A DNA stretch of 42,790 nucleotides from Alphaproteobacteria bacterium (lineage in GTDB: Bacteria > Pseudomonadota > Alphaproteobacteria > SP197), in assembly GCA_016869675.1 (NCBI GenBank), contig VGDP01000028.1:1-42790 (forward strand), in the 5' to 3' direction. The translations under genes and the position numbers were made by a program. Below, piece by piece: positions 18,696 to 40,821 of this stretch. The notes under the pieces are model-generated. The model saw nothing but the letters and a program-made list of their open reading frames with translations. It did not search any database and was not told where the DNA came from. Positions within the stretch are counted from its first letter, which is position 1. Each line of letters begins with the position of its first letter.

Positions 18696-18765
18696 GCGAG
18701 CCGGCGTGCGCTGACGTCGCGGCCCGCACCGTCGTAGACTGGCGCCGCAACAGAAGGACGTGACC

Positions 18766-21742: not shown

Positions 21743-22714
21743 CTAACCCGGCCACACCGCGATCGGGCGGCCCGAGAAGGTCGCGCGGTACATCAGGCGG
21801 CGGAATCCGGCGTAATCGTTCACCGCGTAGTGCAGGGTCGAGTAGTTGTCCCACACGGCGATGGTGCCGGCGGTCCAGCGGAACCGGCAGAAGAACTCGG
21901 GCCTGATGCAATGGGCGCGCAGCCGGTCGAGGATCGGCCGGCTTTCGTCCTCGGTCATGCAGTCCAGCTGCGTGACGTAGATCGGGTTGACGTAGATCGA
22001 GCGTCGGCCCGTGACCGGGTGGACCAGCACGGCCGGATGAAACCGCTTCTCGTCGGCCTTGGGATCGTCGCGGATGATCTTGATCGCGCCGGTCATGCGC
22101 GTTTCCATGGGCGGCGCCCACTTGAGGCCGTGCGGCTTGCCGACATGGACGGCATCGCGGCCGTCCAGGACCACGCGCAGATCGGCGGGCAAGGCCTCGT
22201 AGGCCGTCGCCTGGTTCGACTACAGGGTATCGCCGCCGTAGGGCGGCACCTGGACCGCGTTGAGCAGCGAACCGGCGGGTGGTTGCTCGAGGAAGCTCAA
22301 GTCCGAGTGCCAGTCACCGCCGAACACGCCGCCGGTCTCGTGCGCCTCCTTGATGACCTTGATGGCGTAGGGGTCGTCCGCCATGCCCTCGATGTAGGTC
22401 GAGCGGGCGAGTGGGCCGAACACCTCGGTCAGTACCTTCTGCTGCGGGATGGTCAGAAACTGGTCGCGAAGAAACAGGACAAGGTGGCGATGAAGCGCTT
22501 CGCTCCGGGCCTGCGCGAGCTCGGTCGCGATAGGCGCGCGCAGATCGACACCGTCGATCTCGGCGCCGACGCGTCCCGTGAGCGGATGTTCGGCGAGCGT
22601 GATTCCTCGTACCCCAGGATCACCGCTACCATGGCACGTCGAATGTGGGAGTACGAGGGGCGCACGGTTCCCCGGCTTCGGGCGAGGCCCTAGAATGGGC
22701 CATGGCTCGGGCAC
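21743..22714 (-). pseudogene. TauD-type dioxygenase with internal amber codon
   Basis: Two adjacent pieces in one frame make a single TauD/TfdA-family 2-oxoglutarate dioxygenase. The N-terminal piece contains GAEIDGVDLRAP, WHSDLSF (His-x-Asp iron ligands) and ends at GGDTL; after a TAG (22220-22222) the sequence continues SNQATAYEALPADLR, with WDNYSTLHYAVNDYAGFRRLMYR carrying the distal His and Arg. Family members have Trp at the TAG position (GDTLWSN), so one G-to-A change in TGG explains it. A normal start is also hard to find: the only in-frame ATG (22714) overlaps the divergent regulator gene. Loss of function is likely. A sequencing error is possible, and readthrough is less likely. Confidence 0.88.
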
Positions 22715-23706: not shown

Positions 23707-24555
23707 TCAGGCCCGCTGTCGAGAAACCCGATTGACCAGCCGTCCGGCGGGATCGGCGTTGACCGACGCGCCGCGGGCACGGGCGACAGCCGCCTGGAAG
23801 GCGCAACCCTCGTCCGAGAAATCGCTCGTGGGCCGGGGCTCGGGCCGGAAGTGGCCGAATCGATCGGTTCCGCGCAACGCGAGCGCGGTATCGTCCGCGA
23901 CGACGGTCTGGCGTACCGACGGCGTGATCAGGTTCATGTTGAAGCCGATGCGCCGATCGGTCGAGCGATTTCCACCCGAGGCATGCAGCACCAAGCCGTG
24001 GTGCAGCGACATCTGGCCCGGCCGCAGCACGATGGGCACGGCCCGCGCCAGGTCTTCGACCGCGACGTCCACGGTCTGACCGCGCGACAGGATGTTGTCG
24101 GCGTCGGCCGTCGCCCTATGAGCGGCGTGCGTCCGGTGGCTGCCCGGGATCATGCTCATGGTGCCGCTCTCGACCGTTGCCGGCGACAGCGCGAGCCAGA
24201 CCGAGACCACGTCGTCGACCTTGTCGAGACCCCAGTACGTCAGGTCCTGGTGCCAGCTCACGAATTTCGAAGTACCGGGTTCCTTGATGATGAAGGCGGA
24301 ATCCCAGGCCAGGATGTCGGGCCCGAGGATGTCCTCGACCGCGTCGAGCAACGCCGGCCAATGCGCCATTTCGTCGGCGGCCGTGACAAAGAGCGTCGGT
24401 TTGACGGTGTAGTGCAGGGGCCCGTGGGCCCGCTCCAGCGCCTCAATGCGGGCGCGAAGCCCGGCGGCCTGGTCCTCGGTCATGACCGTGATCGGCGCGA
24501 CGAAGCCGTCGCGCCAGTACCGCGCGACCTGCTCCTCGGTCAGGCGCTTGGGCAC
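23707..24555 (-). CDS. Phytanoyl-CoA dioxygenase (PhyH) family oxygenase
   Basis: A 282-residue non-haem iron, 2-oxoglutarate-dependent oxygenase. His102 and Asp104 in SWHQDLTYWG and His191 in LHHGLVLHASGGN form the iron site, and Arg201 in RRIGFNMNL is the 2-oxoglutarate partner. SMIPGSHR is a PhyH hallmark. Bacterial members act on small molecules (for example ectoine) as well as lipids. The WHQD and IPGSH region does not by itself prove an ectoine hydroxylase. The GTG at 24555 opens the conserved protein; the ORF continues upstream over the glyoxalase gene only as a shadow. It lies 16 bases after that gene and is likely co-transcribed. Confidence 0.88.
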   Translation of the reverse strand: MPKRLTEEQVARYWRDGFVAPITVMTEDQAAGLRARIEALERAHGPLHYTVKPTLFVTAADEMAHWPALLDAVEDILGPDILAWDSAFIIKEPGTSKFVSWHQDLTYWGLDKVDDVVSVWLALSPATVESGTMSMIPGSHRTHAAHRATADADNILSRGQTVDVAVEDLARAVPIVLRPGQMSLHHGLVLHASGGNRSTDRRIGFNMNLITPSVRQTVVADDTALALRGTDRFGHFRPEPRPTSDFSDEGCAFQAAVARARGASVNADPAGRLVNRVSRQRA

Positions 24556-24571
24556 GGTCGGCCCGCCGGCC

Positions 24572-24994
24572 TCACCAGTTTCCCGTGTTGGGCATCGAAG
24601 CCCAGGGTTCGCGCGGAGGGAGGGAATCACTCTCCTGGAGCAGCTCGACCGAAATACCATCGGGCGAGCGCACGAACGCCATGTGGCCATCGCGCGGCGG
24701 TCGGTTGATGGCGATCCCCGCCTTCTTGAGCTTGTCGCACAGCGCGTAGATATCCTTCACGCGATAGGCGAGGTGGCCGAAGTTGCGCCCACCCTTCAGA
24801 TCCTCGGCATCCCAGTTGTGGGTCAATTCGACCTGGGCCTCCTCGTCGCCGGGGGCGGCCAGGAAGACCAGCGTGAAGCGGCCCTTCTCGTTGACGTAGC
24901 GCTCGCCAACTTCGACGAGGCCGAGCTTGTTGCAGTAGAAGTCGAGCGAGGCGTCCAGGTCGCTGACCCGGACCATGGTGTGCAGGTATTTCAC
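24572..24994 (-). CDS. gloA: Glyoxalase I-type VOC protein
   Basis: A 140-residue vicinal-oxygen-chelate protein closely resembling lactoylglutathione lyase. The N-terminal LHTMVRVSDLDASLDFYCNK contributes the first metal His; QVELTHNW has a Glu; GRNFGHLAYRVKDI has the second His; and DPDG-type SPDGISVELLQ carries the last Glu. These match the four GlxI metal ligands. It detoxifies methylglyoxal with glutathione in the cytosol. The GTG start at 24994 is the only one consistent with the domain. It is first in a two-gene unit with the PhyH oxygenase. Confidence 0.9.
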   Translation of the reverse strand: MKYLHTMVRVSDLDASLDFYCNKLGLVEVGERYVNEKGRFTLVFLAAPGDEEAQVELTHNWDAEDLKGGRNFGHLAYRVKDIYALCDKLKKAGIAINRPPRDGHMAFVRSPDGISVELLQESDSLPPREPWASMPNTGNW

Positions 24995-25071: not shown

Positions 25072-26223
25072 TCAGCTCGGGACGACTTCCAGGCGGCGTT
25101 CGGGGGCCAGGTCGAAATCGTTGCGCTCCAGGCCGGCGATCAGCATTTCGAGATCGCGTGGCGGATCGCCGGGCAGGCGCGATCCCAACGCCGCGATGGC
25201 CGCGCTGACCAACGCCCGGCGCCGCTCGGCCGGCGGCACGGTTTCAAACCGCCTTGCCAGAGGAATGGCGACGCGCAGCAGCTCGTGCATGCCGTCGGGC
25301 AGGCCGGCCGCGCGCACGATCGAACGAAGCCCGAGCGGCCCGGAATCGTGGATCAGGGCCTGCGCGTTGCCGCGCGGGATGCCGCACAGCTTGCTCAGGG
25401 CGCACTCCACCGCCAGCAGGCGGCCCGTGCACAGCATGCGGGTGATCATGGACGGCGTTACGCTACCCTTCACGCGCAAGGCATCGACGAACGTCTCGAT
25501 CTGCTGCGCGGTCGCGTCGACGGGCAGCAGATCCAGGGTGGCGCGTTCGCGGCCCAAGCGGATGACGGTCTCGCTCAGCGCGTCGAGGATGCCGTGGGAT
25601 TCGGCGAGCTGCAGGCGGATGTTCTTGGACACCAGGGTCACCAGCCGCTCGGCGAGATGCACGGGCAGGGCTTGGCGCTGGGCGAGCTGATCCATGACCA
25701 GCTCGCTGCCCGAGAACAGGTCGATGATCTTGGCGCCCACGCGGTCGCTCACCTCGGCGCCCGGGTTCTTCACCAGGGTCCCGACCACGTCCTCGCTGCC
25801 GTGGTCCGCGATGGCCTCGGATACGGCCTTGGACACGTGCTCGCGCTGGGCAATGGCCATCTGGAACGACGCGGGCCGGGTCCGTACCAGTTCGACAAGG
25901 TCGTCGTCGGTCAAGACCAACGAATTGTGCAGCATGGGCACCGCGACCTGCTCGACGTCGCGGGCGAGCGCCAGGGCCACGTCGTGTGGCACCATGGCGT
26001 TGTCCTTGAGCTGATCGGCGAGCGCCGCGCGCACGCGCGAGTCTGCATCGCGGATCATGACCCGGAAGATCGATTCGGCGAGCGCGCGTTCCTTGGGCGT
26101 CAGGTCAGGCCGCTTATGCACCGCCGCGATCTTGCTGGCCGCCTGCGCCTTGATCTCGGGCGTCGGTTCCTTGAGCAGCTTGGCGACGTCTTCTTCTGTC
26201 AGCACTGGCATGGCAAGTCCCAT
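25072..26223 (-). CDS. DUF2336 helical-repeat protein
   Basis: A 383-residue DUF2336 protein. This family is largely alphaproteobacterial and has HEAT-like helical repeats; several leucine-rich helix pairs are visible (for example VRAALADQLKDNAMVPHDVA and VSDRVGAKIIDLF). No signal peptide or membrane segment is seen. The function is not established. Single-gene unit on the minus strand, with 139 bases to the next gene upstream. Two starts are possible, 26223 and 26211 (four codons apart); I keep the first. Confidence 0.82.
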   Translation of the reverse strand: MGLAMPVLTEEDVAKLLKEPTPEIKAQAASKIAAVHKRPDLTPKERALAESIFRVMIRDADSRVRAALADQLKDNAMVPHDVALALARDVEQVAVPMLHNSLVLTDDDLVELVRTRPASFQMAIAQREHVSKAVSEAIADHGSEDVVGTLVKNPGAEVSDRVGAKIIDLFSGSELVMDQLAQRQALPVHLAERLVTLVSKNIRLQLAESHGILDALSETVIRLGRERATLDLLPVDATAQQIETFVDALRVKGSVTPSMITRMLCTGRLLAVECALSKLCGIPRGNAQALIHDSGPLGLRSIVRAAGLPDGMHELLRVAIPLARRFETVPPAERRRALVSAAIAALGSRLPGDPPRDLEMLIAGLERNDFDLAPERRLEVVPS

Positions 26224-26362: not shown

Positions 26363-28357
26363 TTACCCCCGGCGTCGGCGGCGCTGGGCAGCCTCGCCAG
26401 ACGGACCGGTCGCCGCCTTGGGCGCGGGCAGGGTCACGGCCTTGGCCAGGTTGGGGTAGGGGGCCGTCTTGTGCGGCAAGGCCATGGCGCCGACGAAATG
26501 CTCCTGGAAGCGCGGCTCGATCGCGGTCTCGACCTTTTCGATGCGGTGGACCACGGTCTCGATTTCGGCGCGCGCCGCCTTGTTGAGCAGGGCGATGCGG
26601 GCACCCGTGCCGGCGGCGTTGCCGGCAGCCGAGACCTTGGCCAGATCGCAATCGGGGATCATGCCCAGCACCATGGCGTACATCACGTCGATGTGACTGC
26701 CGAAGGCGCCGGCCAGCACGATCCGATCGACGGTGTTCACGCCCATCTGGTCCATCAGCAGGCGCGCGCCGGCATAGAGCGCCGCCTTGGCGAGCTGGAT
26801 CTGGCGCACGTCGTTCTGGGTGATGACCAGGCGCGGCTCGCCCTCGTGCACCACGTAGGAAAAGGTGCGGCCGTCGGCGATGACGCGCGGGCTGCGTTCG
26901 GCGAAGGCACCGTCGACCACGCCGTCCTGGTTGATGATGCCGGACAGGTACATCTCGGCGATTGCCTCGATGATGCCGGAGCCGCAGATGCCAGTGACGT
27001 GGCCGTTGAAGCCCGGCTCGTCGGACCAGACGTCGCAGCCGATCACCTTGAAGCGGGGCTCCAGGGTCGCCCGGTCGATGCGGATCCGTTCGATCGCGCC
27101 GGGTGCCGCCCGCTGGCCGGCGCTGATCTGCGCGCCCTCGAAGGCGGGCCCGGTGGGCGATGAGCACGCGAGCACCTTGTGCTTGTTGCCCAGCACGATC
27201 TCGGCGTTGGTGCCGACATCGACCACCAGCATCAGCTCGTCGGACTGGTGCGGCGATTCCGACAGCACCACGCCGGCCGCGTCCGCGCCCACGTGGCCCG
27301 CAATGCACGGCAGCACATAGGCCCGCGTGTCGCGGTTGAGCCTGAGGTCCAGTTCGCTCGCCCACAGATCGACCGCGCCATCGGTGGCCAGGGGGAAGGG
27401 CGCGCCCCCCAGGGGCGTCGGGTCGATGCCCAGGATCAGGTGGTGCATGATCGGGTTGCCGACCAGCACGATCTCGAGAATGTCGCTGAGGGCGACACCG
27501 GCTTCCCGGGCGGTCTCCTCGGCCAGCGACTGGATCGCCGCGCGGACCACGCGGGTCAGCTCCTTGTCGCCGCCGGGGTTCATCATGACGTAGCTGACCC
27601 GGCTCATCAGATCCTCGCCAAAGCGGATCTGCGGATTCATGGCGCCGGCCGCGGCGACGACGTCACCGGTCTGCAGATTGCACAGGTGCGCCGCGATGGT
27701 GGTCGAACCCACGTCGATCGCCAGACCGAAGAGCTGGTCGTGGAAGCCCGGCTCGACGTGCAGGAGGCGCGCGCCACCGCGCACCGCCACGGTGACCTTG
27801 AACTCGCCCTTGGTCAGCGCCTCGTGGAGGCTTTGCAGCACCTGCAGGTCGGCGGTCAGGTCGCCGAGCCCCCATTCGCGCGCGAGCGCCCGCTTCAGCC
27901 GTTCGAAATGACCGGCGGGATCGTGCATGTCCGGCTGGTCGACCTCGACGTAGTGAAGCGTGACGATCGGGTCGAGCTCGATGCGGCGTGCCTCGGCGCG
28001 CTTGCGCACCACCTGCTTGTGCACCTGGGAATCGGCCGGGACGTCGATCACCAGGTCACCGCGAATCACCGCCTGACACGACAGGCGCCGGTCGGCCGCG
28101 AACTTGCGGTTGCGCGCGCGCAGGCGTCGCTCGACCTCGGTTTCACCGCCCACGTGGTCGGGGCGCGATTCGATGCCGTGTTTGGGGTATGAGCCCTCGC
28201 CCACGACCACCTGGCAGCGGCCGCACAGCGCGCGACCGCCGCACACGGAATCGATATCGACGCCGAGTTGGCGCGCGGCGGTCAGCAGCGGCGTGCCGAG
28301 GGCGAATCGCCCGCGCCGGCCGCTGGGCGTGAAGACGACGAGCGGATTGTCAGCCAC
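26363..28357 (-). CDS. Corrinoid-protein reductive activator (ferredoxin-ASKHA, RACo-like)
   Basis: A 664-residue protein (DUF4445/ASKHA family). The N-terminus is a 2Fe-2S ferredoxin domain with Cys39, Cys45 and Cys48 in SVCGGRALCGRCQ and the fourth, Cys94, in RLSCQ. A linker follows, and from about residue 215 an ASKHA ATPase fold begins with LAIDVGSTTIAAHL. Later motifs include VVDVGTNAEIVLG and VLAGAFGSHID. Such proteins use ATP and an electron to return oxidised cob(II)alamin to cob(I)alamin in methyltransferase systems. The GTG at 28357 overlaps the upstream methyltransferase stop by eight bases. The Arg-rich C-terminal tail (QRRRRRG) is unusual. It is last in the operon. Confidence 0.9.
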   Translation of the reverse strand: MADNPLVVFTPSGRRGRFALGTPLLTAARQLGVDIDSVCGGRALCGRCQVVVGEGSYPKHGIESRPDHVGGETEVERRLRARNRKFAADRRLSCQAVIRGDLVIDVPADSQVHKQVVRKRAEARRIELDPIVTLHYVEVDQPDMHDPAGHFERLKRALAREWGLGDLTADLQVLQSLHEALTKGEFKVTVAVRGGARLLHVEPGFHDQLFGLAIDVGSTTIAAHLCNLQTGDVVAAAGAMNPQIRFGEDLMSRVSYVMMNPGGDKELTRVVRAAIQSLAEETAREAGVALSDILEIVLVGNPIMHHLILGIDPTPLGGAPFPLATDGAVDLWASELDLRLNRDTRAYVLPCIAGHVGADAAGVVLSESPHQSDELMLVVDVGTNAEIVLGNKHKVLACSSPTGPAFEGAQISAGQRAAPGAIERIRIDRATLEPRFKVIGCDVWSDEPGFNGHVTGICGSGIIEAIAEMYLSGIINQDGVVDGAFAERSPRVIADGRTFSYVVHEGEPRLVITQNDVRQIQLAKAALYAGARLLMDQMGVNTVDRIVLAGAFGSHIDVMYAMVLGMIPDCDLAKVSAAGNAAGTGARIALLNKAARAEIETVVHRIEKVETAIEPRFQEHFVGAMALPHKTAPYPNLAKAVTLPAPKAATGPSGEAAQRRRRRG

Positions 28358-29276
28358 GGTTGCGTCGACCCTCCCGGCGCCGGCCGCCCGCGCCGCCGGC
28401 CTCGACCCCGCCGTGGCTCTGGGCGGCGAAACGGTCGCCCGAGAACTTGCGGATCCACCGCGCGCAGTTGGCGTCGTGGCCGAGCAGCACGTCGGCGCCC
28501 ATCACCGCCGCCATGATCTCGGGCTCCAGCGGGTTCGTGATCGCCGAGGTCATGCCGCTGGCCATGGCCATGGTCAGGAAGGCGGCGTTCAGCCCCTTGC
28601 GGTTGGGCAGGCCGAACGAGATGTTCGATGCCCCGCACGTCGAGTTGACCTTCAGCTCCTCGCGCAGCCGGCGGATGATGCGGAACGCCTGGTTGCCGGC
28701 CTCGCCGAGCGCGCCGATCGGCATGACCAGGGGGTCGACCACCACATCGGCCGGCGGGATACCGTGATCCTGGGCGCGCTCGACGATCTTCTTGGCCACC
28801 GCGAAGCGGACGTCGGGGTCCTCGGAGATGCCGGTCTCGTCGTTGGAGATGGCGACGACCGCCGCGCCGTACTTCTTGACCAACGGCAGCACGGTCTCGA
28901 GCCGGTCTTCCTCGCCGGTCACGGAATTGACCAGGGCCTTGCCCTTGTAGACGGAGAGGCCCGATTCGAGCGCCGCGACGATCGAGGAATCAATCGACAG
29001 CGGCACGTCGGTCAACGACTGCACCAGCTTGACCGCCTCGGCCAGGATGGCCGGTTCGTCGGCGAGCGGGATGCCGGCGTTGACGTCGAGCATGTGGGCG
29101 CCGGCCTCGACCTGGGCGCGCGCGTCGCTCTCGACGCGGCTGTAGTCGCGCACCGCCATCTCGGCGGCCAGCAGCTTGCGGCCGGTCGGGTTGATCCGCT
29201 CGCCGATGATGACGAACGGTCGATCGAAGCCGATAACGACCTCCTTGGTCGCCGAACTGATGACGGTATCGGTCAT
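28350..29276 (-). CDS. Methyltetrahydrofolate:corrinoid methyltransferase (DHPS fold)
   Basis: A 308-residue protein of the pterin-binding TIM-barrel family that includes AcsE and MtgA. GERINPTGRK (25-34) is the pterin-binding start, HMLDVNAGIPLADE carries the conserved Asp-Asn, and VPLSIDSS, LVNSVTGEE and TCGASNISFGLPNR follow in family order. It should pass the methyl group between the cob(I)alamin protein and tetrahydrofolate. The last ~25 residues are Gly/Arg-rich and look dispensable. The ATG at 29276 overlaps the MetF-like stop (ATGA), with AAGGA upstream. Its 3' end overlaps the activator gene. Confidence 0.9.
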   Translation of the reverse strand: MTDTVISSATKEVVIGFDRPFVIIGERINPTGRKLLAAEMAVRDYSRVESDARAQVEAGAHMLDVNAGIPLADEPAILAEAVKLVQSLTDVPLSIDSSIVAALESGLSVYKGKALVNSVTGEEDRLETVLPLVKKYGAAVVAISNDETGISEDPDVRFAVAKKIVERAQDHGIPPADVVVDPLVMPIGALGEAGNQAFRIIRRLREELKVNSTCGASNISFGLPNRKGLNAAFLTMAMASGMTSAITNPLEPEIMAAVMGADVLLGHDANCARWIRKFSGDRFAAQSHGGVEAGGAGGRRREGRRNRG

Positions 29277-30301
29277 GAAGCGGTCCTTCTGATGGATGGG
29301 TCGTGAACGGGGCGCGCGCCCGGGTTCTGGCTGGGCCGTCGGCCCGCCAGCGCGCCCGAGGCCTGGACGATGTCGCTGACCAGCTCTTCCTGGCGGTAGG
29401 CCATCATGTGGATGCCCGCGACGCCGGGGATCGCGCGGATGCGCTGGATGAGATCGACGCAGAGTGCCTTGCCCTCGGCCTTCTGGTTGGCCGCGCTTTC
29501 CAGCCGGGCGATGACGTCGTCGGGGATGTGGACGCCGGGCACGTTGCTGCGCATCCACTTGGCCGTGCGCGCCGAGGCCAGCGGCGCGACGCCGACCAGG
29601 ATGAACGCTTTCTCGTGCAGGCCCATGTCGCGGACCCGCGCCATGAAGCGTTCCAGCAGCGGGATGTCGTAACAGTACTGGGTCTGGATGAACTGGGCGC
29701 CAGCCGCGATCTTCTTGGCCAGGCGCAAAGGACGGAAGTTGTAGGGCGGGGCAAAGGGGTTCTCGGCGGCGCCCAGCAGCACGCGCGGCGGCACGGTGAT
29801 CGCGCGACCCGATAGGAAGCGCCGGTCGTCGCGCATGGTGCGGATGGTCGCCAGCAGCGACGTCGAATCCAGGTCAAACACCGGTTTCGCGCCCGGCTGA
29901 TCGCCGGCCTGCACGCCGTCGCCCGTCAGGCACAGGATGTTGCGCACACCCATGGCCGCCGCGCCCAGCACATCGCCCTGGATCGCGATGCGGTTGCGGT
30001 CGCGACACGAGATCTGCATGACCGTGGAGTAGCCGGCGCGCGTCAACAGGGCACAAATGCCGACGCTGGACATATGGGTGTTGGCGCCAGAGGCGTTGAT
30101 CGCGTCGGCGACCTCGGACAGCACCACCGCGCGGTCGTAGACCTCGCGCAGGTCGGCCGAATCCAACGGATTGAGTTCAGCCGTGACGGCGAACCGGCCG
30201 GCGCGCAGCACGCGCTCAAGCCGCGAGCCCGAAGCATAACCCTCGGGGATCGGGAACGGCGCCCCGGGGTCGTAGAGCGGGCTTTCGCGGGGTTCGGTCA
30301 C
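29273..30301 (-). CDS. Methylenetetrahydrofolate reductase-like protein 1
   Basis: A 342-residue MetF-type TIM barrel. Motifs: FAVTAELNPLDSADLREVYD (N-terminal strand with the catalytic-type Glu), GANTHMSS, RDRNRIAIQGDVLGAAAMG, NILCLTGDGVQAGDQPGAKPV for FAD/folate contact, and FIQTQYCYDI. MetF normally makes methyl-THF; in this setting it may run towards methylene-THF. Compared with the second copy (30774-31715) it has a longer N-terminus and a different C-terminal tail. The GTG at 30301 overlaps the preceding stop (GTGA), and its own stop overlaps the methyltransferase start, so it is translated in series. Confidence 0.88.
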   Translation of the reverse strand: MTEPRESPLYDPGAPFPIPEGYASGSRLERVLRAGRFAVTAELNPLDSADLREVYDRAVVLSEVADAINASGANTHMSSVGICALLTRAGYSTVMQISCRDRNRIAIQGDVLGAAAMGVRNILCLTGDGVQAGDQPGAKPVFDLDSTSLLATIRTMRDDRRFLSGRAITVPPRVLLGAAENPFAPPYNFRPLRLAKKIAAGAQFIQTQYCYDIPLLERFMARVRDMGLHEKAFILVGVAPLASARTAKWMRSNVPGVHIPDDVIARLESAANQKAEGKALCVDLIQRIRAIPGVAGIHMMAYRQEELVSDIVQASGALAGRRPSQNPGARPVHDPSIRRTAS

Positions 30302-30765
30302 GGCGTCAGGCTCTGAACCGGGTCGGCGCGCTCGCGCACGATCCGCAGCCACGAGGACGAGTCCTTCAGCCGATGGTCGACCGGTGGCTGTACCATCCCG
30401 ATCTTGTCGCCGCCGGCCATGCGCGTGGAGCCCTCCCACGCCTTGACCCAGACGCACGGCATGTCGGGTTTGACCTCGCAGTGGCCGTTCTCGCGCACGC
30501 CGCCGCACGGCCCGTTGCGCAGGGTCTTGGGGCAGTTCATCGGGCACGACATGCCGGTGGACGACAGGACGCAGCGGCCGCACATGCGGCAGTCGAACAG
30601 GAGGCCCTTGATCGTCCGTTCGGCTGCAGCGATGGGCCGTTCGGCCCGATCGAGCCCGATCCGGCGCCACAGCGGCGCGAGGCCCGCGAAGAGGGGCTCG
30701 AACACAGCGTAGACACGCTCAAGCAGCCGTGCGTTGCGGACCGACCACAGGCGAACGGCCAACAT
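30298..30765 (-). CDS. MetF C-terminal-type Cys-rich protein (MetV-like)
   Basis: A 155-residue protein with a dense cysteine core: CRMCGRCVLSSTGMSCPMNC, then NGPCGGVRENGHCEVKPDMPC. This is the pattern of the methylenetetrahydrofolate reductase C-terminal domain (PF12225), found as MetV in acetogens where it teams with MetF and may carry metal or Fe-S. The N-terminus (~60 residues) is helical and basic. It lies eight bases after one MetF-like gene and overlaps the other, so it probably forms a complex with one or both. Confidence 0.85.
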   Translation of the reverse strand: MLAVRLWSVRNARLLERVYAVFEPLFAGLAPLWRRIGLDRAERPIAAAERTIKGLLFDCRMCGRCVLSSTGMSCPMNCPKTLRNGPCGGVRENGHCEVKPDMPCVWVKAWEGSTRMAGGDKIGMVQPPVDHRLKDSSSWLRIVRERADPVQSLTP

Positions 30766-30773
30766 GAGCGCCG

Positions 30774-31715
30774 CTAGGCGCGCGGTCGACCGCGCACGGC
30801 GGCGGCCTCGGCGACCGCGGCGATCGCGTCGGCCTTCTGCTGCGGCGCCATGATGTGGGCGCCGGCGATGCCCGGGATCTCGGCGAACGCCTGAATCAGC
30901 TCAACGCAGATCGCGCGACCCTCGGCCTTCTGGTCGGCCGCACCTTCGATCCGTGCGATCGTCGGTTCGGGGATCGAGACGCCGAACAGGTTCTCGTTCA
31001 TCCAGCGCGCCTGCTTGACCGACAGCAGGGGGCCGACGCCGACGATGAACGACGCGCGCTCGGTGATGCCGAGGTCGCGCAGCCGCCCGAAGTAGCGCTT
31101 GGCCATGACGACGTCATAGACGAACTGGGTCTGAAAGAAATCAGCGCCGGCCGCGATCTTCGCCTCGATACCCTTGGGCGCGAAATCCGGCTTGGGATCC
31201 TGGGGCGCGTCGGCCGCGCCGACGAAGAGGCGAGGGGCTGGGTCGATCTTGCGGCCTGAAGGCAGCACTGCCTCGTCTCGCAGCTGGCGCGCCAGCGACA
31301 TCAAGGCGCGGCTGTCGATGTCATAGACCATCTTGGTCTCGGGCTGGTCGCCGGCCTTCACGTCGTCGCCGTGCAGGCAGAGAAGGTTCGGGATGCCGAG
31401 CGCCGACATGCCGATCAGATCGCCTTCCAGCGCCAGGCGGTTGCGGTCGCGCACGGTGAACTGCAGCACGGGCTCGATGCCGAGCCGGGCCAGCACCGCC
31501 GCCGCGGCGAAGGCGGACATGTGGGCACGCGCCCCGGCGCCATCGGTGACGTTGACCGCGTCGACCGCGCCCTTGAGCACGCCGGCGCGCGCGGCGACCG
31601 CATCCGCGCTGGCCGCGTCCGGCGGCGTGATCTCGGCGGTTAGGACGAAGCGGCCCGCGCTGATCGCGGCCTCGAGCGCGCCACCCGAGCGCAGGGTCGC
31701 CGTGCCGACGTTCAT
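30774..31715 (-). CDS. Methylenetetrahydrofolate reductase-like protein 2
   Basis: A 313-residue MetF-type protein, clearly paralogous to the one at 29273: FVLTAEITPPDAASADAV, GARAHMSAFAAAAVLAR, RDRNRLALEGDLIGMSALG, NLLCLHGDDVKAGDQPETKMVYDIDS, FFQTQFVYD. The ATG at 31715 overlaps the stop of the PF13769 gene (ATGA). Two MetF-like proteins flanking a MetV-like one suggests a hetero-complex or different partners for each reductase. Substrate is expected to be methylene-/methyl-THF. Confidence 0.88.
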   Translation of the reverse strand: MNVGTATLRSGGALEAAISAGRFVLTAEITPPDAASADAVAARAGVLKGAVDAVNVTDGAGARAHMSAFAAAAVLARLGIEPVLQFTVRDRNRLALEGDLIGMSALGIPNLLCLHGDDVKAGDQPETKMVYDIDSRALMSLARQLRDEAVLPSGRKIDPAPRLFVGAADAPQDPKPDFAPKGIEAKIAAGADFFQTQFVYDVVMAKRYFGRLRDLGITERASFIVGVGPLLSVKQARWMNENLFGVSIPEPTIARIEGAADQKAEGRAICVELIQAFAEIPGIAGAHIMAPQQKADAIAAVAEAAAVRGRPRA

Positions 31716-32017
31716 GGCTTCGCCTCCAGTCCACCGTTGAGCACGAGCCCGTGGACCCGTTCCTCGTCGTACTCGTTCTCCAGCCGCGCCGCGGCTTCGG
31801 CCGCAACGGCCTCCAGGTCGTCGCCGCAAGGCTGCGGATCGGCGCGGTGCCACTCGCCCAAGTACGAGTCCGTGTCGCGCAGGCCGGCGCGCATGGCCGC
31901 CCGATCGATCGCGGTCTCGAACCGCTCCGGCAACACACGCTTGGCGGTCTGCCGCCCCGCCTTGGCGATCACCTGGGCCGGGATGTCACGCCAATAGACG
32001 ACCGTCAGCGTCGCCAT
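31712..32017 (-). CDS. PF13769 'virulence factor' small protein
   Basis: A 101-residue cytosolic protein. The motifs VVYWRDIPAQVIAK, AKRVLPERFETAIDRAAMRAG and GEWHRADP match the alphaproteobacterial 'virulence factor' family (PF13769), a name without a proven function. It lies in the middle of the corrinoid operon. It starts 32 bases inside the DUF1638 gene and overlaps the MetF-like gene by ATGA. The position argues for a role in methyl or folate chemistry and not in virulence, but this is inference. Confidence 0.82.
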   Translation of the reverse strand: MATLTVVYWRDIPAQVIAKAGRQTAKRVLPERFETAIDRAAMRAGLRDTDSYLGEWHRADPQPCGDDLEAVAAEAAARLENEYDEERVHGLVLNGGLEAKP

Positions 32018-32627
32018 CGTCAGCCTCCATTGGTCGCGCAGCCCTGGCCATGAACGTGCCGAGCTCGCCGTAGCCGGTGAAACGCCGCTCGTAGGCCAGG
32101 CCGAGCCGTTGCGCCGCCGCCTCGGCCGCCGTGTCGAGCGCCGGATCGTCGACCTGGGCCAAATAGATCAGGCGTCGGTAGTTGCCGAAGTAGTCGTCGC
32201 GTAGCTGCGGATACCGATCCAGCCCGAGCCCGGCAATGATCAACCGGTCGAAGTGCTTCACCAGGTAGTCGGTCAGGTAGAACGTACCTGGCTCGGCGTC
32301 ATGCAAAGCCTCAAACGCCTCGCGCCCGGCGAAGAACTGGTAGCAGTGGGGTCCGTCGATCCGCTCGATGCCTTCCTCGGTGAGCACCCGGTCAAGCAGG
32401 CCGCCCGTGCCACAATCACCGTAGACCACGACGATGCGCTCGAAGCGGCCACGGTTCTCGCGGATCTTGGCGCGCACCGCCTCGGGGATCTTGTCCGGCG
32501 TGTTGTGCCAATGGGCGGGCAGGCACTGCACGGCCAGATGGCTCCAGCCATTAAGGCGGATCACGTCGGTGATCTCCCAGGCCAGCGCGCCGCACGCGAT
32601 CAGAAGCGTCCTGGGCGCGCGGCCCAT
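31986..32627 (-). CDS. DUF1638 protein in corrinoid operon
   Basis: A 213-residue DUF1638 protein of unknown biochemical function. It has a row of potential metal or cofactor ligands: Cys12 (ACGALA), Cys35, His39 and His41 (QCLPAHWHN), Cys72 (YGDCGTGG), His94 and Cys95 (GPHCYQFF). No signal peptide. It starts 13 bases after the corrinoid-protein gene and overlaps the next gene by 32 bases, so it is part of the same message. The ligand-rich pattern and neighbourhood suggest a metal- or corrinoid-related job. Confidence 0.85.
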   Translation of the reverse strand: MGRAPRTLLIACGALAWEITDVIRLNGWSHLAVQCLPAHWHNTPDKIPEAVRAKIRENRGRFERIVVVYGDCGTGGLLDRVLTEEGIERIDGPHCYQFFAGREAFEALHDAEPGTFYLTDYLVKHFDRLIIAGLGLDRYPQLRDDYFGNYRRLIYLAQVDDPALDTAAEAAAQRLGLAYERRFTGYGELGTFMARAARPMEADDGDADGRLLA

Positions 32628-32640
32628 AGCGGTCTCCGGG

Positions 32641-33354
32641 TCAGGCGGTGGCCGGCGGCTGGTTGGACCGCCAACGCTCGGCGATCATCTGCTTGGCCGT
32701 CTCGACCGCGACCGCGGCGTCGCGGCAGTAGGCGTCGGCGCCGATCGCCTCGGCGAACGCCTCGTTCAACGGCGCGCCGCCGACCAGCACGATGTAGTCA
32801 TCGCGCAAGCCCTTCTGCTTTAGCGTGTCGATGACGACCTTCATGTACGGCATGGTCGTGGTCAGCAGCGCCGACATGCCCAGGATGTCCGGCTGGTGTT
32901 CCTCCAGCGCGCCCAGGTACTTGTCCACGTCGTTGTTGATGCCGATGTTGATCACGTCGAACCCGGCGCCTTCCATCATCATGGCGACCAGGTTCTTGCC
33001 GATATCGTGGATGTCGCCCTTGACCGTGCCGATGACCATCTTGCCCATGCGCGGCGCGCCGGTCTCGGCCAGCAACGGCCTGAGGATGGCCATGCCCGCC
33101 TTCATGGCGTTCGCCGCCAGCAGCACCTCGGGCACGAACAGGATGCCGTCTCGGAAGTCGATGCCGACGATGCGCATGCCCTCGACCAGCGCCTTGGTCA
33201 GCACGTCGTAGGGTGTCCATTTGCGCCCCAGCAGAATGTGCGTGCCCTGCTCGATCTCCTCGGCCAGACCGTCGTAGAGGTCCTCGTGCATCTGCTGCAC
33301 GAGGTCGTCGTCGCTCAGCGCGTTCAGATCGAGGTCTTGTCCGTTGTCGGCCAT
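32641..33354 (-). CDS. Corrinoid (cobalamin-binding) methyl carrier protein
   Basis: A 237-residue protein of the MtbC/MttC/MtgC type. Residues ~20-100 form the helical cap (GIDFRDGILFVPEVLLAANAM), and the cobalamin domain follows with GDIHDIGKN: Asp114, His116 and Gly119 of the DxHxxG motif, His116 being the lower cobalt ligand. SALLTTTMP and VLVGGAPLN complete the fold. It carries the methyl group between the MttB-family enzyme and the THF methyltransferase. ATG at 33354 is chosen because the family's helical domain starts soon after; the frame is open to 33531 but the extension would run through the promoter region. First gene of the minus-strand operon, divergent from the MttB gene. Confidence 0.92.
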   Translation of the reverse strand: MADNGQDLDLNALSDDDLVQQMHEDLYDGLAEEIEQGTHILLGRKWTPYDVLTKALVEGMRIVGIDFRDGILFVPEVLLAANAMKAGMAILRPLLAETGAPRMGKMVIGTVKGDIHDIGKNLVAMMMEGAGFDVINIGINNDVDKYLGALEEHQPDILGMSALLTTTMPYMKVVIDTLKQKGLRDDYIVLVGGAPLNEAFAEAIGADAYCRDAAVAVETAKQMIAERWRSNQPPATA

Positions 33355-33450
33355 GGTCGTCGCGTCTCCGGTCCGGGCAAGGCTAGCCGCGCATGCGCCA
33401 TGCAATAGGGCCGCCGCAGTCCGAATTGATATCGCATTTCCGCCAATCAG

Positions 33451-33467
33451 TTGTCCATATTCGACAA
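33451..33467. promoter_or_regulatory. Candidate operator between divergent mtt-type genes
   Basis: The 197-base gap 33355-33551 must hold promoters for both the MttB gene and the corrinoid operon. Within it, TTGTC-CATATTC-GACAA is a 5-bp-arm inverted repeat in an AT-rich patch and could be a dimeric regulator site. TTGATA at 33425-33430 is a possible -35 element for the plus-strand gene. Both are weak, pattern-based calls. Confidence 0.35.
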
Positions 33468-33551
33468 GCGCAGGGTGCCGCGCGGCGCCCTTTGAAACGT
33501 CCCCGGCGCGACCCCATAATCGCGTCGTCACCAGCGGGCGAGGAGCGAGCC

Positions 33552-35078
33552 ATGGCCATTGTCCAACAACGCCGCGGCCGGGAGGCCCGGCGCGCCGAAC
33601 GGCTGCACGCGCCGATCGTCCAGAAGCGGACGCTGGTGCGCGATATTCCCCTTTACGAACTGCTCGACGCCGAAGGGCTCGAGGTCGTTCACGACGCCTC
33701 GATGACGGTGCTCGAGGAGATCGGCATCGAGTTCCGCGACGGCGAGGCCCTGGCGCTGTGGCGGGCGGCGGGCGCCGACGTCAAGGGGCAGCGCGTGCGC
33801 TTGCCGCGCGAACTGGTGCTGGCGAAGCTGAGTACACTGCCCGCGACATTCGTCCAGCACGCGCGCAACCCCGAGCGCAGCGTCACCATCGGCGGCCGCC
33901 ATACGGTGTTCGCGCCGACGTACGGCTCGCCCTTCGTGCGCGGGTTCGACAACGTGCGCCGCTACGGCACGATCGAGGATCTGCGCAATTTCGTAAAGCT
34001 GGCGTACTTGACGCCGCACATCCACCATTCCGGCGGCGTGATCTGCGAGCCGGTCGACGTGCCGGTGCCGAAGCGGCACCTGGAAATGGTCTACACGCAC
34101 ATCAAGCACTCGGACAAACCCTTCATGGGCATGGTCACCGCCCAGGAACGCGCCGAGGACACGGTGACCATGGCGCGCCTGCTGTTCGGCGAGGCGTTCG
34201 TCGAGCGCAACTGCGTTCTGGTCTCGGTGGTCAATTGCAACTCGCCGCTGGTGTGGGACGGCACGATGCTCGCCGCACTCAAGGTCTACGCCCGGGCGAA
34301 CCAGGCGGTCCTCGTCACGCCGTTCATCATGGCGGGCGCCATGAGCCCGGCCTCGACCGCGGGCGCAGTCGCGCAGCTCAACGCCGAGGTGGTCGCCGGC
34401 CTGGCGTTCACCCAGCTCGTGCGACCCGGCGCGCCGATGGTCTACGGTTGCTTCGTCTCGACCGTCTCCATGCAGTCCGGCGCGCCCATGATGGGCACGC
34501 CCGAGCCGGCGCAGATGATCTACCTGTCGACGCAACTGGCGCGGAAGTACAAGGTGCCCGTGCGTGCCGGCGGCATGCTGTGCGGTTCCAAGATCGCCGA
34601 TGCCCAGGCCGCCTACGAGTCGGTCCAGACCATGATCCCGACCCTGCTGGGCGGCACCAACTTCGTGCTGCATTCGGCGGGTTGGCTGGAAGCCGGCCTG
34701 TGCGCCGGCTACGGCAAGTTCGTGCTGGACGCCGACCAGGTCGGCATGCTCGAGCGCTTCGCCCACGGCGTCGACCTGGGGCCCGAGGGCTTAGCCATGG
34801 ACGCGCTGCGCGAGGTGGGACCTGGCGGGCACTATCTCGGGTGTGCCCACACGCGTCGGCACTACACGACCGCGTTCTATCTGCCGGCGACATGCGACAA
34901 CAATTCCTACGAGCAGTGGCAGGCTGAGGGCGAGTTCGACGCCAACGCGCGCGCGCTGGTGACGGCGCGCCGCATGCTCGACGAGTACGAGGCGCCACCG
35001 TTGGATCTGGGCATCGACGAGGCGTTGTGCGCGTTCATCGCCAAGCGCAAGGCCGAGCTGCCGGACGACGTGTCGTGA
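33552..35078 (+). CDS. MttB-family methyltransferase without pyrrolysine
   Basis: A 508-residue member of the trimethylamine methyltransferase (MttB) family. Family landmarks: EVVHDASMTVLEEIGIEFRD near the N-terminus, NPERSVTIGGRHTVFAPTYG, NCNSPLVWDGTM, FIMAGAMSPASTAGA and RAGGMLCGSKIADAQAAYES. The archaeal MttB needs an in-frame amber codon for pyrrolysine; none is present here, as in the bacterial glycine-betaine and related methyltransferases. It should demethylate a quaternary amine such as glycine betaine, proline betaine or carnitine and pass the methyl to the corrinoid protein; which one cannot be told. ATG at 33552 has AGGAG upstream; the frame extends to 33393 without support. Divergent from its partner operon. 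Confidence 0.9.
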   Translation: MAIVQQRRGREARRAERLHAPIVQKRTLVRDIPLYELLDAEGLEVVHDASMTVLEEIGIEFRDGEALALWRAAGADVKGQRVRLPRELVLAKLSTLPATFVQHARNPERSVTIGGRHTVFAPTYGSPFVRGFDNVRRYGTIEDLRNFVKLAYLTPHIHHSGGVICEPVDVPVPKRHLEMVYTHIKHSDKPFMGMVTAQERAEDTVTMARLLFGEAFVERNCVLVSVVNCNSPLVWDGTMLAALKVYARANQAVLVTPFIMAGAMSPASTAGAVAQLNAEVVAGLAFTQLVRPGAPMVYGCFVSTVSMQSGAPMMGTPEPAQMIYLSTQLARKYKVPVRAGGMLCGSKIADAQAAYESVQTMIPTLLGGTNFVLHSAGWLEAGLCAGYGKFVLDADQVGMLERFAHGVDLGPEGLAMDALREVGPGGHYLGCAHTRRHYTTAFYLPATCDNNSYEQWQAEGEFDANARALVTARRMLDEYEAPPLDLGIDEALCAFIAKRKAELPDDVS

Positions 35079-37004: not shown

Positions 37005-37943
37005 ATGGAGCGGTTCCGCTTCCTGCTGTTCCGGCCGCTGCAACTGATCCCGGTGCTGTTCGGCATCAGCCTGGTCAGTTTCGTACTGGTCCAGTCGATC
37101 CCGGGTGATCCGGTCAAGATCCTGCTGGGCCCACGCGCCACGCCCGAGGTGGTGGCGGCGACCAAGGCCAAGTTCGGGCTCGACCAGCCGATCCACGTCC
37201 AGTACGCGCGCTTCCTGGTCAACCTGACCGAGGGTGAATTCGGCCGTTCGCTGCTCTACAAGGTGCAGGTGTTCGAGGTGGTCACGGCACGCCTGCCAGC
37301 GACTGTCTTCCTGGTTGTCTATGGGGTCGTCTTTGCCGTGGCGGTCGCGTTCCCCCTGGCCATCGTCGCCGCATGGTGGCGCGGCGGCTGGCCCGATCAC
37401 GCGATCCGCGTGTTCTCGACGTTCGGCCTGGGCCTGCCGGTGTTCTGGCTGGGCATCATGCTGATGATCCTGCTGAGCGTCGAACTCGACCTGTTTCCGG
37501 TCTCGGGCTACGGCGAGACGTTCATCGAGCGGCTGCACCACCTGTTCCTGCCGGCGCTGTCGATCGCGCTCGCCTTGTCGCCCATCCTGATCCGCAATTT
37601 GCGCGCCGGCCTGATCGCCGAGCAGAGCGCCGATTACGTCACAGCGGCGCGCGCCCGTGGGCTCGGGCGCCGTGCCATCCTGCTGCGGCACATCCTGCCC
37701 AACGCCATCCTGCCGACGGTGCAACTGCTGGGTGTCAACGTGGGCTGGCTGATCGGCGGCACGGTGGTCATCGAGTCCGTGTTCGCCGTCCCGGGCCTTG
37801 GCCAACTCATGGTCAGCTCCATCTTCGCGCGCGACTACATGGTGGTGCAGCTCGTCACCCTGGTGTTCGCCGTGGCCATCGTCGCGACCAACCTGTTGGT
37901 CGACGTGGCGACCGTTGCGCTCGATCCCAGGATCGACCTGTGA
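37005..37943 (+). CDS. Dipeptide/oligopeptide ABC permease, DppB type
   Basis: A 312-residue inner-membrane permease. The N-terminal RPLQLIPVLFGISLVSFVLV and IPGDPVKILLG, the VIESVFAVPGLGQLMV segment and the coupling loop YVTAARARGLGRRAILLRHIL are DppB/OppB hallmarks. About six membrane segments. Its stop overlaps the next gene in a GTGA. It pairs with the following permease. Confidence 0.93.
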   Translation: MERFRFLLFRPLQLIPVLFGISLVSFVLVQSIPGDPVKILLGPRATPEVVAATKAKFGLDQPIHVQYARFLVNLTEGEFGRSLLYKVQVFEVVTARLPATVFLVVYGVVFAVAVAFPLAIVAAWWRGGWPDHAIRVFSTFGLGLPVFWLGIMLMILLSVELDLFPVSGYGETFIERLHHLFLPALSIALALSPILIRNLRAGLIAEQSADYVTAARARGLGRRAILLRHILPNAILPTVQLLGVNVGWLIGGTVVIESVFAVPGLGQLMVSSIFARDYMVVQLVTLVFAVAIVATNLLVDVATVALDPRIDL

Positions 37944-38770
37944 GCGGGGCGTCGCTAGCCGAGGTGGCGCGGCTGCCCCGGCTCGCCATCGTTGGCGGCG
38001 CCATGATCCTGGCCTGGATCATGGTCGCGCTCCTGGCGCCGTGGTTCGCGCCCTTCGACCCGATCGAGCAGGACCTGACGCGAACGCTGCTGCCGCCGAA
38101 CCTTCAACACTGGCTGGGCACCGACAACTATGGCCGGGATGTTCTTTCGCGGCTGATCTGGGGTGCCCGGCTCGACCTCCAGATGGGTCTGGTCGCCGTG
38201 GCGATCACGTTCTCGATCGGCACCGTGATCGGGGCCATCGCGGGCTACGTGGGCGGGTTCCTCGACACCCTGCTCATGCGCCTGCTCGACGTGACCATTT
38301 CGTTCCCGTTCTTCGTGCTGATGATCGCGATCATCTCGGTGCTCGGGTCCGGGCTTGCCGGCTTCTACATCGCGGTCGCCCTGGTCGGCTGGGTCAGCTA
38401 CGCGCGCATCGTACGCGCGCGCACCCTGGTGCTGCGCCAATCCGACTTCGTTCTCGCGGCGCGCAGCCTGGGGTTCCGACCGGCGCGCATCCTGCTGCGC
38501 CACATTGTGCCGAACGCCATCGCGCCCGCCGTCGTGTTCTCCATGTCGGATGCGGTGCTCTACATCCTGCTCGGCTCGTCGCTCAGCTATCTGGGGCTGG
38601 GCGTCGAGCCGCCGACCGCCGAATGGGGCGTCATGATCGCCGAGGGCCAGACCTACATCGCCACGGCCTGGTGGATGACCACGTTTCCCGGCTTCGCCAT
38701 CGCTCTGCTCGCGTTGGCGTTCAGCCTTTTCGCCGATGGGCTGGCCGAAGTCTTGGGCACGTCCACGTGA
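37940..38770 (+). CDS. Dipeptide/oligopeptide ABC permease, DppC type
   Basis: A 276-residue permease. WFAPFDPIEQDL, HWLGTDNYGRDVLSRLIWGAR and the coupling loop FVLAARSLGFRPARILLRHI are standard for DppC/OppC. The GTG at 37940 overlaps the DppB-type stop; the long open frame upstream is a shadow. The stop overlaps the next gene's GTG. It forms the channel with its neighbour. Confidence 0.93.
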   Translation: MSGASLAEVARLPRLAIVGGAMILAWIMVALLAPWFAPFDPIEQDLTRTLLPPNLQHWLGTDNYGRDVLSRLIWGARLDLQMGLVAVAITFSIGTVIGAIAGYVGGFLDTLLMRLLDVTISFPFFVLMIAIISVLGSGLAGFYIAVALVGWVSYARIVRARTLVLRQSDFVLAARSLGFRPARILLRHIVPNAIAPAVVFSMSDAVLYILLGSSLSYLGLGVEPPTAEWGVMIAEGQTYIATAWWMTTFPGFAIALLALAFSLFADGLAEVLGTST

Positions 38771-40763: not shown

Positions 40764-40821
40764 CCTGCCGGCTGGCCGCGACCGCGACAAAGGGCCGGGG
40801 CGCCTCACAGGGGAGGACTTC

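What the first reader, a model, noticed from the sequence alone, without database searches (positions are those of the whole stretch)
26363..35078. Corrinoid-to-folate demethylation system with two unassigned partner proteins
Eight minus-strand genes, most with overlapping ends, plus a divergent MttB gene form a complete methyl route: MttB-type enzyme, corrinoid carrier, DHPS-fold THF methyltransferase, MetF/MetV-type oxidation and a reactivase. The families are known separately, mainly from anaerobes. Here the surrounding genes (oxygenases, glyoxalase) suggest an aerobic host. DUF1638 and the PF13769 protein are embedded in the same overlapping chain, so they are likely functional parts of the pathway.
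Basis: partly seen in the sequence, partly recalled or inferred. Interest (0 to 1): 0.75.

Follow-up and report, generated by a model that had tools for sequence, protein, structure and literature searches.

The report
Aerobic betaine-type demethylation operon, extra protein
The genes form a vitamin-B12-dependent pathway that strips methyl groups from betaine-like compounds and burns them, a system already described in aerobic bacteria; the new part is that a small protein misnamed 'virulence factor' was found in nearly every sampled genome of this phylum that has the pathway.

Summary
In detail: eight same-strand genes, five of seven junctions overlapping, plus a divergent MttB. The pathway reading is right, but the kind is known: aerobic MtgBCD glycine-betaine demethylation (PMC12478193, 2025), with DUF1638 and the DUF4445 reactivase tied to B12 reactivation by fitness (PMC5764234, 2018). 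The open partner is PF13769. Of 144 genomes of the class it is in 31, all with MttB (in 32); of 299 of the phylum, in 38, all with MttB (in 39). It lies just upstream of a MetF-type gene in 68 of 80 loci and is fused to the reactivase once. I infer an accessory to the pathway's redox modules; its biochemistry is unknown. Against: a Paracoccus aminovorans plasmid operon without PF13769; Bacillus subtilis has PF13769 without MttB. The host has one close MtgC, no other PF02219 MetF, two stand-alone homocysteine methyltransferases and at least nine MttBs. The window MttB is a sister paralog of the usual operon MtgB.

The parts
33552..35078 (+). MttB-superfamily methyltransferase (non-pyrrolysine); substrate:corrinoid methyl transfer, sister clade of MtgB
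   Evidence: PF06253 3.8e-219; 59% to PDB 4yyc and 44.5% to PDB 2qne over aligned columns; trees
33355..33551 (.). divergent intergenic region between MttB and MtgC
   Evidence: sequence; no Rfam match in the window at gathering scores
32641..33354 (-). MtgC-type corrinoid protein (B12 cap + B12-binding, DIHDIG motif)
   Evidence: the only close copy in the genome, one further 28% partial match
31986..32627 (-). DUF1638 protein, B12-reactivation partner by published fitness of a relative
   Evidence: PF07796 1.1e-30; invariant C12, H41, C72, H94, C95 in 41 sequences; AF2 model pLDDT 88.5
31712..32017 (-). PF13769 'Virulence_fact' protein, pathway-linked accessory
   Evidence: PF13769 1.2e-27; co-occurrence; synteny; AF2 model pLDDT 93.9
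30774..31715 (-). MTHFR paralog A (MetF-like), extra copy seen in few lineages
   Evidence: PF02219 5e-29; 47% aligned identity to paralog B
30298..30765 (-). DUF5981 / MetV-like Cys-rich subunit
   Evidence: PF12225 2e-27; eight Cys invariant in 43 sequences
29273..30301 (-). MTHFR paralog B (MetF-like catalytic subunit)
   Evidence: PF02219 1e-30
28350..29276 (-). MtgD-type methylcorrinoid:H4F methyltransferase (DHPS fold)
   Evidence: PF00809 1e-29; NCBIfam NF005719 368 bits over a 259 cut-off
26363..28357 (-). RACo/DUF4445 ATP-dependent corrinoid reductive activase with 2Fe-2S domain
   Evidence: PF14574 1.5e-91, PF17651, PF17650, Fer2; Cys 39, 45, 48, 94 invariant in 66 sequences

Best explanation
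This is the single-copy core ('hub') of an aerobic-type MtgBCD corrinoid demethylation pathway. MttB-family enzymes pass a methyl group from a quaternary amine, most likely glycine betaine or a close analogue, to Co(I) on MtgC. The DHPS-fold MtgD moves it to tetrahydrofolate. A MetF/MetV-type enzyme (paralog B + DUF5981, with paralog A) oxidises methyl-H4F to methylene-H4F for C1 oxidation. When Co(I) is oxidised to Co(II), the RACo/DUF4445 activase, with DUF1638, reduces it again using ATP. Run backwards, MtgC and MtgD with a stand-alone homocysteine methyltransferase elsewhere in the genome (MtgE-type) would supply methionine. PF13769 is inferred to be a small non-redox accessory protein docking on the Fe-S redox modules (activase and/or MetVF), needed for the catabolic mode. 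Known from print for relatives: MtgC/MtgD function, the reactivation role of DUF4445 and DUF1638. Shown here: gene content, synteny, co-occurrence, the fusion. Inferred: substrate, MetF direction, PF13769 role.
For: Domain content. Published Ruegeria mtgC and mtgD mutants lose both GBT growth and methionine synthesis; MetF2, RamA and DUF1638 proteins are more abundant on N-osmolytes (PMC12478193, Results and Discussion read). Published Phaeobacter fitness links DUF4445 and DUF1638 to B12 reactivation (PMC5764234, passages). Host: one close MtgC, the only two PF02219 matches both in this operon, two PF02574 frames of 356 and 349 residues, too short for MetH, one passing the NF005718 cut-off, at least 9 MTTB. 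Azoarcus sp. KH32C plasmid pAZKH carries the same operon core with betA, betB, a choline-binding protein, proV and permease, one MTTB place about 20 kb off, folD, purU, a FAD oxidoreductase with ETF, sarcosine oxidase, glyA and serine ammonia-lyase: a choline/glycine-betaine island. PF13769: 63 of 63 distinct PF13769 genomes in two surveys have MTTB; 78 of 80 scanned loci have a core gene within 10 kb; just upstream of a MetF-type gene in 68 of 80 (41 DUF5981, 24 remote MetF-like, 3 MTHFRa); fused to RACo in Terrarubrum. DUF5981 has eight invariant Cys, enough for the two 4Fe-4S clusters predicted for acetogen MetV (PMC8760232, passages).
Against: The window MttB is not in the clade that holds most operon-linked MTTBs (58.5% to S. 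meliloti, 56.7% to Azoarcus); the host's closer match is on contig C20 (68-70%), so the window MttB may act on another substrate. No enzyme assay was found for this lineage. A P. aminovorans plasmid operon with MttB, MtgC, DUF1638, DUF5981, MTHFR, MtgD and activase has no PF13769 match in that record (its chromosome was not searched), and 7 of 15 plasmid records with MtgC hold none. Two of 80 loci (L099, L105) have PF13769 with no core gene within 10 kb. PF13769 is in the B. subtilis control, which has no MTTB, while Methanosarcina acetivorans has MTTB and DUF1638 but no PF13769. The MTTB matches of one PF13769 genome (G006, a fragmented assembly) are partial only. The PF13769-RACo fusion is a single case among 146 loci scanned by script, 112 of which carry PF13769 in the maps. 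MetE was not searched for, so methionine synthesis may not depend on this operon.
Confidence: 0.85

Rival explanations
1. PF13769 is a partner of the corrinoid reductive activase (RACo): it helps recognise MtgC or deliver electrons during reactivation of Co(II).
For: Fused to RACo in Terrarubrum flagellatum; directly upstream of RACo in L078, L082, L132 and in G045; next to DUF1638 (under 300 bp, same strand) in 22 of 31 PF13769 genomes.
Against: Only one fusion. In roseobacter loci such as L092 and L109 PF13769 sits with a MetF-like gene and mtgD, with no RACo within 10 kb. Price et al. name five Phaeobacter methionine-synthesis genes that include DUF4445 and DUF1638 but not PF13769 (passages), though a 100-codon gene could be missed.
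Confidence: 0.4
2. PF13769 is a subunit or assembly factor of the methyl-H4F-oxidising MetF/MetVF enzyme.
For: Just upstream of a MetF-type gene in 68 of 80 loci (L142 makes 69), and it stays with MetF-mtgD when MtgC/DUF1638 lie elsewhere (L051, L053, L068). It follows MTTB more tightly than DUF1638 does, as a catabolic-only part would.
Against: It is also present where the next gene is mtgD (3 loci) or RACo (3 loci). In L060 the MetF-like gene lies beyond mtgD and the activase. Three different MetF types would all need the same partner.
Confidence: 0.35
3. The window MttB and the operon demethylate a compound other than glycine betaine (for example another betaine or N-methyl amino acid), glycine betaine being handled by the C20 MttB using the same hub.
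For: Window MttB belongs to a separate supported clade (100/99) with two family relatives and two MAG loci; C20 groups with most operon-linked MTTBs. The eight other MttB loci fetched from the host show no second MtgC, MtgD or activase by tblastn, within the contig ends.
Against: Same position as MtgB in relatives; sister clades can share a substrate.
Confidence: 0.45
4. The operon is mainly a split methionine synthase, demethylation being secondary.
For: Only two PF02219 matches in the genome, both here; no PF02574 frame of MetH length; MtgE-type protein elsewhere.
Against: Divergent MttB, at least nine MTTB paralogs, 23 GCV_T matches, some partial, and the MttB-linked PF13769 point to catabolism; published mutants of a relative show both roles (PMC12478193). 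MetE was not searched for.
Confidence: 0.1

Closest known systems
MtgBCD(E) of Ruegeria pomeroyi DSS-3 (PMC12478193)
   Same: MttB-family enzyme, MtgC, MtgD, MetF paralog, RamA-type activase and DUF1638; MtgE-type protein encoded elsewhere
   Different: All in one operon here; MetV (DUF5981) + two MetF paralogs instead of MetF2; the words 'virulence factor' do not occur in the paper's main text (PF13769 itself was not a term there); window MttB is a sister clade
Split methionine synthase with DUF4445 and DUF1638 reactivation, Phaeobacter inhibens (PMC5764234)
   Same: Same corrinoid, pterin, DUF4445 and DUF1638 parts
   Different: There studied for methionine only; MttB and PF13769 not among the five genes named in the passages seen
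MtgABC of Desulfitobacterium hafniense, as described in PMC12478193
   Same: Same three-part logic
   Different: Anaerobe; window MttB 44.5% to PDB 2qne, whose origin from D. hafniense is recalled; 9yce, with nearly the same score, is deposited as glycine betaine methyltransferase
MetVF type II methylene-H4F reductase of acetogens (PMC8760232)
   Same: MetF plus Cys-rich partner encoded next to it
   Different: Probably runs in the oxidative direction here; electron acceptor unknown; that acetogen MetV is DUF5981 is recalled

Membership tests
MtgBCD aerobic corrinoid demethylation system | MTTB-family methyltransferase without pyrrolysine | tested here: met
   PF06253 3.8e-219, open frame without TAG
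MtgBCD aerobic corrinoid demethylation system | stand-alone MtgC with B12 cap and B12-binding domains and DXHXXG | tested here: met
   below the curated cut-offs of the two NCBIfam MtgC models (198 of 370 and 176 of 310 bits)
MtgBCD aerobic corrinoid demethylation system | MtgD pterin-binding methyltransferase in the same locus | tested here: met
   PF00809 and NF005719 over its cut-off
MtgBCD aerobic corrinoid demethylation system | DUF4445/RACo activase and DUF1638 | tested here: met
MtgBCD aerobic corrinoid demethylation system | MttB in the clade of most operon-linked MTTBs (MtgB) | tested here: not met
   window MttB falls in a sister clade (100/99); C20 paralog falls in the 32-row clade (99/96) of most operon-linked MTTBs; so 'window MttB is MtgB' is not claimed
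MtgBCD aerobic corrinoid demethylation system | glycine betaine as substrate | not testable with these tools
   only indirect: Azoarcus plasmid island
MetVF type II MTHFR | MetF plus adjacent Cys-rich DUF5981 subunit | tested here: met
   metal and flavin content not testable
RACo/RamA-type corrinoid activase | Fer2 plus linker, middle and ASKHA domains | tested here: met
PF13769 conserved virulence factor (CvfC-type) as a virulence protein | role in virulence | not tested
   name inherited from other work; Staphylococcus cvfC seen only in passages, its link to PF13769 recalled; nothing here points to virulence
PF13769 fold | similarity to a solved fold | tested here: inconclusive
   no Foldseek match at E 0.001 or better; best VIA Z 3.0

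The most novel reading that the evidence does not exclude
PF13769 is a dedicated aerobic-lineage addition to corrinoid methyl metabolism: a small adaptor that keeps the oxygen-sensitive Fe-S/corrinoid machinery (reductive activase and MetVF) working in aerobes, and so part of what let an anaerobic-type pathway operate there. It follows MttB in the Pseudomonadota samples, is fused to the activase once, and is missing from the one control genome with MttB and DUF1638, the anaerobe Methanosarcina acetivorans.
Probability: 0.3. Interest if true: 0.65.

Novelty: new member of a known kind. Interest (0 to 1): 0.42.

Why it matters
The aerobic corrinoid route is reported as a major route of N-osmolyte demethylation in the ocean (PMC12478193), while DUF1638's part in reactivation had no specific proposal in 2018 (PMC5764234). 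PF13769 gives a genetic handle: a 100-residue protein of unassigned function here, annotated 'virulence factor' in Sinorhizobium, Azoarcus and Terrarubrum records, whose occurrence matches MttB almost exactly in the Pseudomonadota samples. Removing it in Ruegeria or Sinorhizobium laboratory strains would directly test whether reactivation or methyl-H4F oxidation depends on it. It would also correct a misleading database name.

Tried and rejected
A structural clue for PF13769: a confident model (pLDDT 93.9; only two of the five models were above 90) but no PDB match at E 0.001 or better and Z at most 3.0 in the second look. This is not evidence of a new fold. DUF1638: an alpha/beta model with one Foldseek match under 0.001 (1a1s, 8.6e-4, TM-score 0.27) and weak resemblance to Asp/Glu racemases and other alpha/beta folds (best Z 7.5), under the level the tool calls meaningful. 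Solved-structure searches by sequence for DUF1638, PF13769 (E up to 1) and DUF5981 (E up to 0.1) found nothing. No tRNA and no Rfam match in the window, so no riboswitch evidence. Rejected: pyrrolysine use (no in-frame TAG in MttB); PF13769 as a virulence factor; DUF1638 as exclusive to MttB; DUF2336 (25072-26223) as part of the operon (it was a query and is absent from those maps).

Rows dropped or kept: of the 31 PF13769 genomes, G006 was not fetched with flanks, so maps the others. One search used the window and 26 loci; L061, L069 and L070 were left out because the script picked a wrong frame. A2 holds the window and 51 of 80 loci, A3 the window and 40 loci, both after a redundancy filter (L140 left out of A3 by hand). 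The tree dropped 20 near-identical rhizobial rows from the 68 and added two; the tool warns of long branches there (2qne, C60, G069, C14, C74). The 80 loci are the best of at least 596 and so favour close relatives; 13 of them are cut short of 10 kb on a side. The surveys are the less biased test; Fisher p values ignore shared ancestry. The MetF-like family between PF13769 and mtgD is only weakly MTHFR-like, so a host gene of that type could have escaped the PF02219 search. The figure 128 printed may count hits of other proteins in the same file and is not used.
Full report
Observation. The window holds, on the minus strand from 33354 down to 26363, genes for an MtgC-type corrinoid protein, DUF1638, PF13769, MTHFR paralog A, DUF5981, MTHFR paralog B, a DHPS-fold methyltransferase and a RACo/DUF4445 activase; an MTTB gene runs the other way from 33552. 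Five of seven junctions overlap. Cofactor signatures are in place: DIHDIG with an invariant His in MtgC (59 sequences), four invariant Cys in the activase's 2Fe-2S domain (66 sequences), eight invariant Cys in DUF5981 (43 sequences).

What is known. Aerobic MtgBCD demethylation of glycine betaine has been shown in Ruegeria pomeroyi: mtgC and mtgD mutants lose both growth on glycine betaine and methionine synthesis, and MetF2, RamA and DUF1638 proteins are more abundant on N-osmolytes (PMC12478193; Results and Discussion read). In Phaeobacter inhibens, fitness data place a DUF4445 protein and DUF1638 with the split methionine synthase as likely B12-reactivation proteins (PMC5764234; passages). 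In the library searched, DUF1638 or PF07796 occurs in three papers. So the pathway, its aerobic setting and DUF1638's link are not new.

PF13769. I found no paper linking PF13769 to this pathway. The searches: (80 papers hold one of the terms, 25 listed; 4 papers; none), and a term search for 'virulence factor' in the main text of PMC12478193 (none). Figures and supplements were not available, so it may be drawn there. In an even sample of 144 genomes of the host's class, PF13769 is in 31, MTTB in 32, DUF1638 in 30; all 31 PF13769 genomes have MTTB and 29 have DUF1638. In 299 genomes of the phylum, PF13769 is in 38, MTTB in 39, DUF1638 in 50; all 38 PF13769 genomes have MTTB and DUF1638, and 12 DUF1638 genomes have neither of the others, 3 of the 12 (G168, G174, G207) being weak partial matches. 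The one MTTB genome without PF13769 in each sample (G062, G220) has only partial MTTB matches; so has G006, which does have PF13769. The samples overlap; distinct PF13769 genomes are 63, all with MTTB. Against this, B. subtilis among the tool's 14 control genomes has PF13769 without MTTB, and Methanosarcina acetivorans has MTTB and DUF1638 without PF13769.

Gene neighbourhood. A collection scan gave at least 596 relatives, of which 80 were kept. In 78 of 80 a core gene (MtgC, DUF1638, MtgD, activase or MttB) lies within 10 kb. The gene just downstream of PF13769 is DUF5981 in 41, a MetF-like gene of a remote family in 24, MTHFRa in 3, mtgD in 3, the activase in 3, and 6 are other or undecided; one of the six, L142, also has the MetF-like gene there. 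The 24 MetF-like proteins are homologous to each other and match MTHFR models weakly where tested. When MtgC and DUF1638 lie elsewhere, as in G131, G018 and G067, PF13769 stays with the MetF-like gene and mtgD (L051, L053, L068). In Terrarubrum flagellatum a single 760-residue protein carries PF13769 and the whole activase; no other such fusion was found among 146 loci scanned, of which 112 carry PF13769 (maps). In a P. aminovorans plasmid the operon is complete but for PF13769, and of 15 plasmid records with MtgC, 8 have a PF13769 match. The other replicons of those strains were not searched.

Substrate. Azoarcus sp. KH32C plasmid pAZKH, predicted mobilizable, holds the same operon (corrinoid protein, DUF1638, PF13769, MetV, MetF, MtgD, activase) with choline-to-betaine genes, betaine transport, sarcosine oxidase, a FAD oxidoreductase with ETF, folD, purU, glyA and serine ammonia-lyase, and a single MTTB place at E 1e-30 about 20 kb away. 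This makes glycine betaine the likely substrate of the operon type. The S. meliloti pSymB MTTB next to its operon is identical to the solved structure 4yyc over the compared columns. In the tree of 50 rows, most operon-linked MTTBs, the Azoarcus enzyme and host paralogs C20 and C60 fall in one clade (99/96; C20's place within it is less well supported); the window MttB, two family relatives and two MAG loci form its sister (100/99). Six MTTBs near operons (G128, G069, L083, L093, L123 and the second of L146) fall outside both, with the other six host paralogs. So the core fits glycine betaine, while the window's own MttB could serve a related compound.

Host. MetE was not searched for. No core gene was found by tblastn beside the eight other MTTB loci fetched, within contig ends. 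This reads as one shared hub serving many methyl donors, and perhaps methionine synthesis too. The two MTHFR paralogs are 47% identical in alignment; the MTHFRa-DUF5981-MTHFRb order was also seen in G027 and G137 of the same family and in L073, L102 and L141.

Mechanism. Shown here: parts, order, co-occurrence, fusion. From print, for relatives: MtgC/MtgD function and DUF4445/DUF1638 in reactivation; acetogen MetVF is predicted to carry two 4Fe-4S clusters in MetV (PMC8760232, passages). Inferred: MetVF runs oxidatively here; PF13769 is an accessory to the Fe-S redox modules. It has no invariant Cys or His, so it is unlikely to carry a metal cofactor itself. I give the activase-partner version 0.4 and the MetF-partner version 0.35.

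Verdict. The operon is a new member of a known kind. The worthwhile new point is the near-exact coupling of PF13769 to MttB in the Pseudomonadota samples and its fusion to the activase, which makes its function testable.

Noticed in passing
window 21111-21740 (+): Cupin protein matching Pfam DMSP_lyase (PF16867, 3e-28; only a weak gentisate-dioxygenase hit in NCBIfam), 4 bp overlap with a 784-residue transketolase/pyruvate-dehydrogenase-E1-like gene (18760-21114).
   Followed up: no
window 37005-42348 (+): Peptide/nickel-type ABC transporter cluster (two permeases, an ATPase with oligo_HPY, SBP_bac_5) downstream of the MttB, EamA and alpha/beta hydrolase genes; EamA and ABC permeases recur next to the operon in relatives L034 and L069.
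   Followed up: partly
window 22220-22714 and 23707-24690 (-): TauD-type and PhyH-type dioxygenase genes near the operon, the basis for an aerobic host; the TauD frame is short (164 aa).
   Followed up: no
L176 10001-12283 (Terrarubrum flagellatum plasmid): Natural fusion of PF13769 and the RACo activase; found once.
   Followed up: yes
L174, L175, L177 (Azoarcus sp. KH32C plasmid pAZKH): An apparently complete choline/glycine-betaine catabolic island with this operon on a predicted mobilizable plasmid of a betaproteobacterium.
   Followed up: yes
L178 (Paracoccus aminovorans plasmid IV): Operon complete but for PF13769; whether the chromosome carries it is unknown.
   Followed up: partly
L163 9072-10634 (host contig C20): Host MttB paralog in the clade of most operon-linked MTTBs, beside a DAO-family FAD oxidoreductase and a peptide-type ABC transporter.
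   Followed up: partly
host genome: 23 GCV_T (PF01571) matches, many in long open frames as in dimethylglycine/sarcosine dehydrogenase-like proteins; looks like a large set, not compared with other genomes.
   Followed up: no
L040, L042 (G107): DUF1638 beside a 47% MtgC-like gene, and a second locus with DUF5981 and MTHFR, in a genome without MTTB or PF13769 matches: DUF1638 may serve other B12 methyltransferases.
   Followed up: no
PMC13009471 passages: In Staphylococcus the cvfC operon, whose name PF13769 shares (link from recall), is tied to thyA expression in a cited title: a possible folate link of PF13769 in Firmicutes.
   Followed up: no
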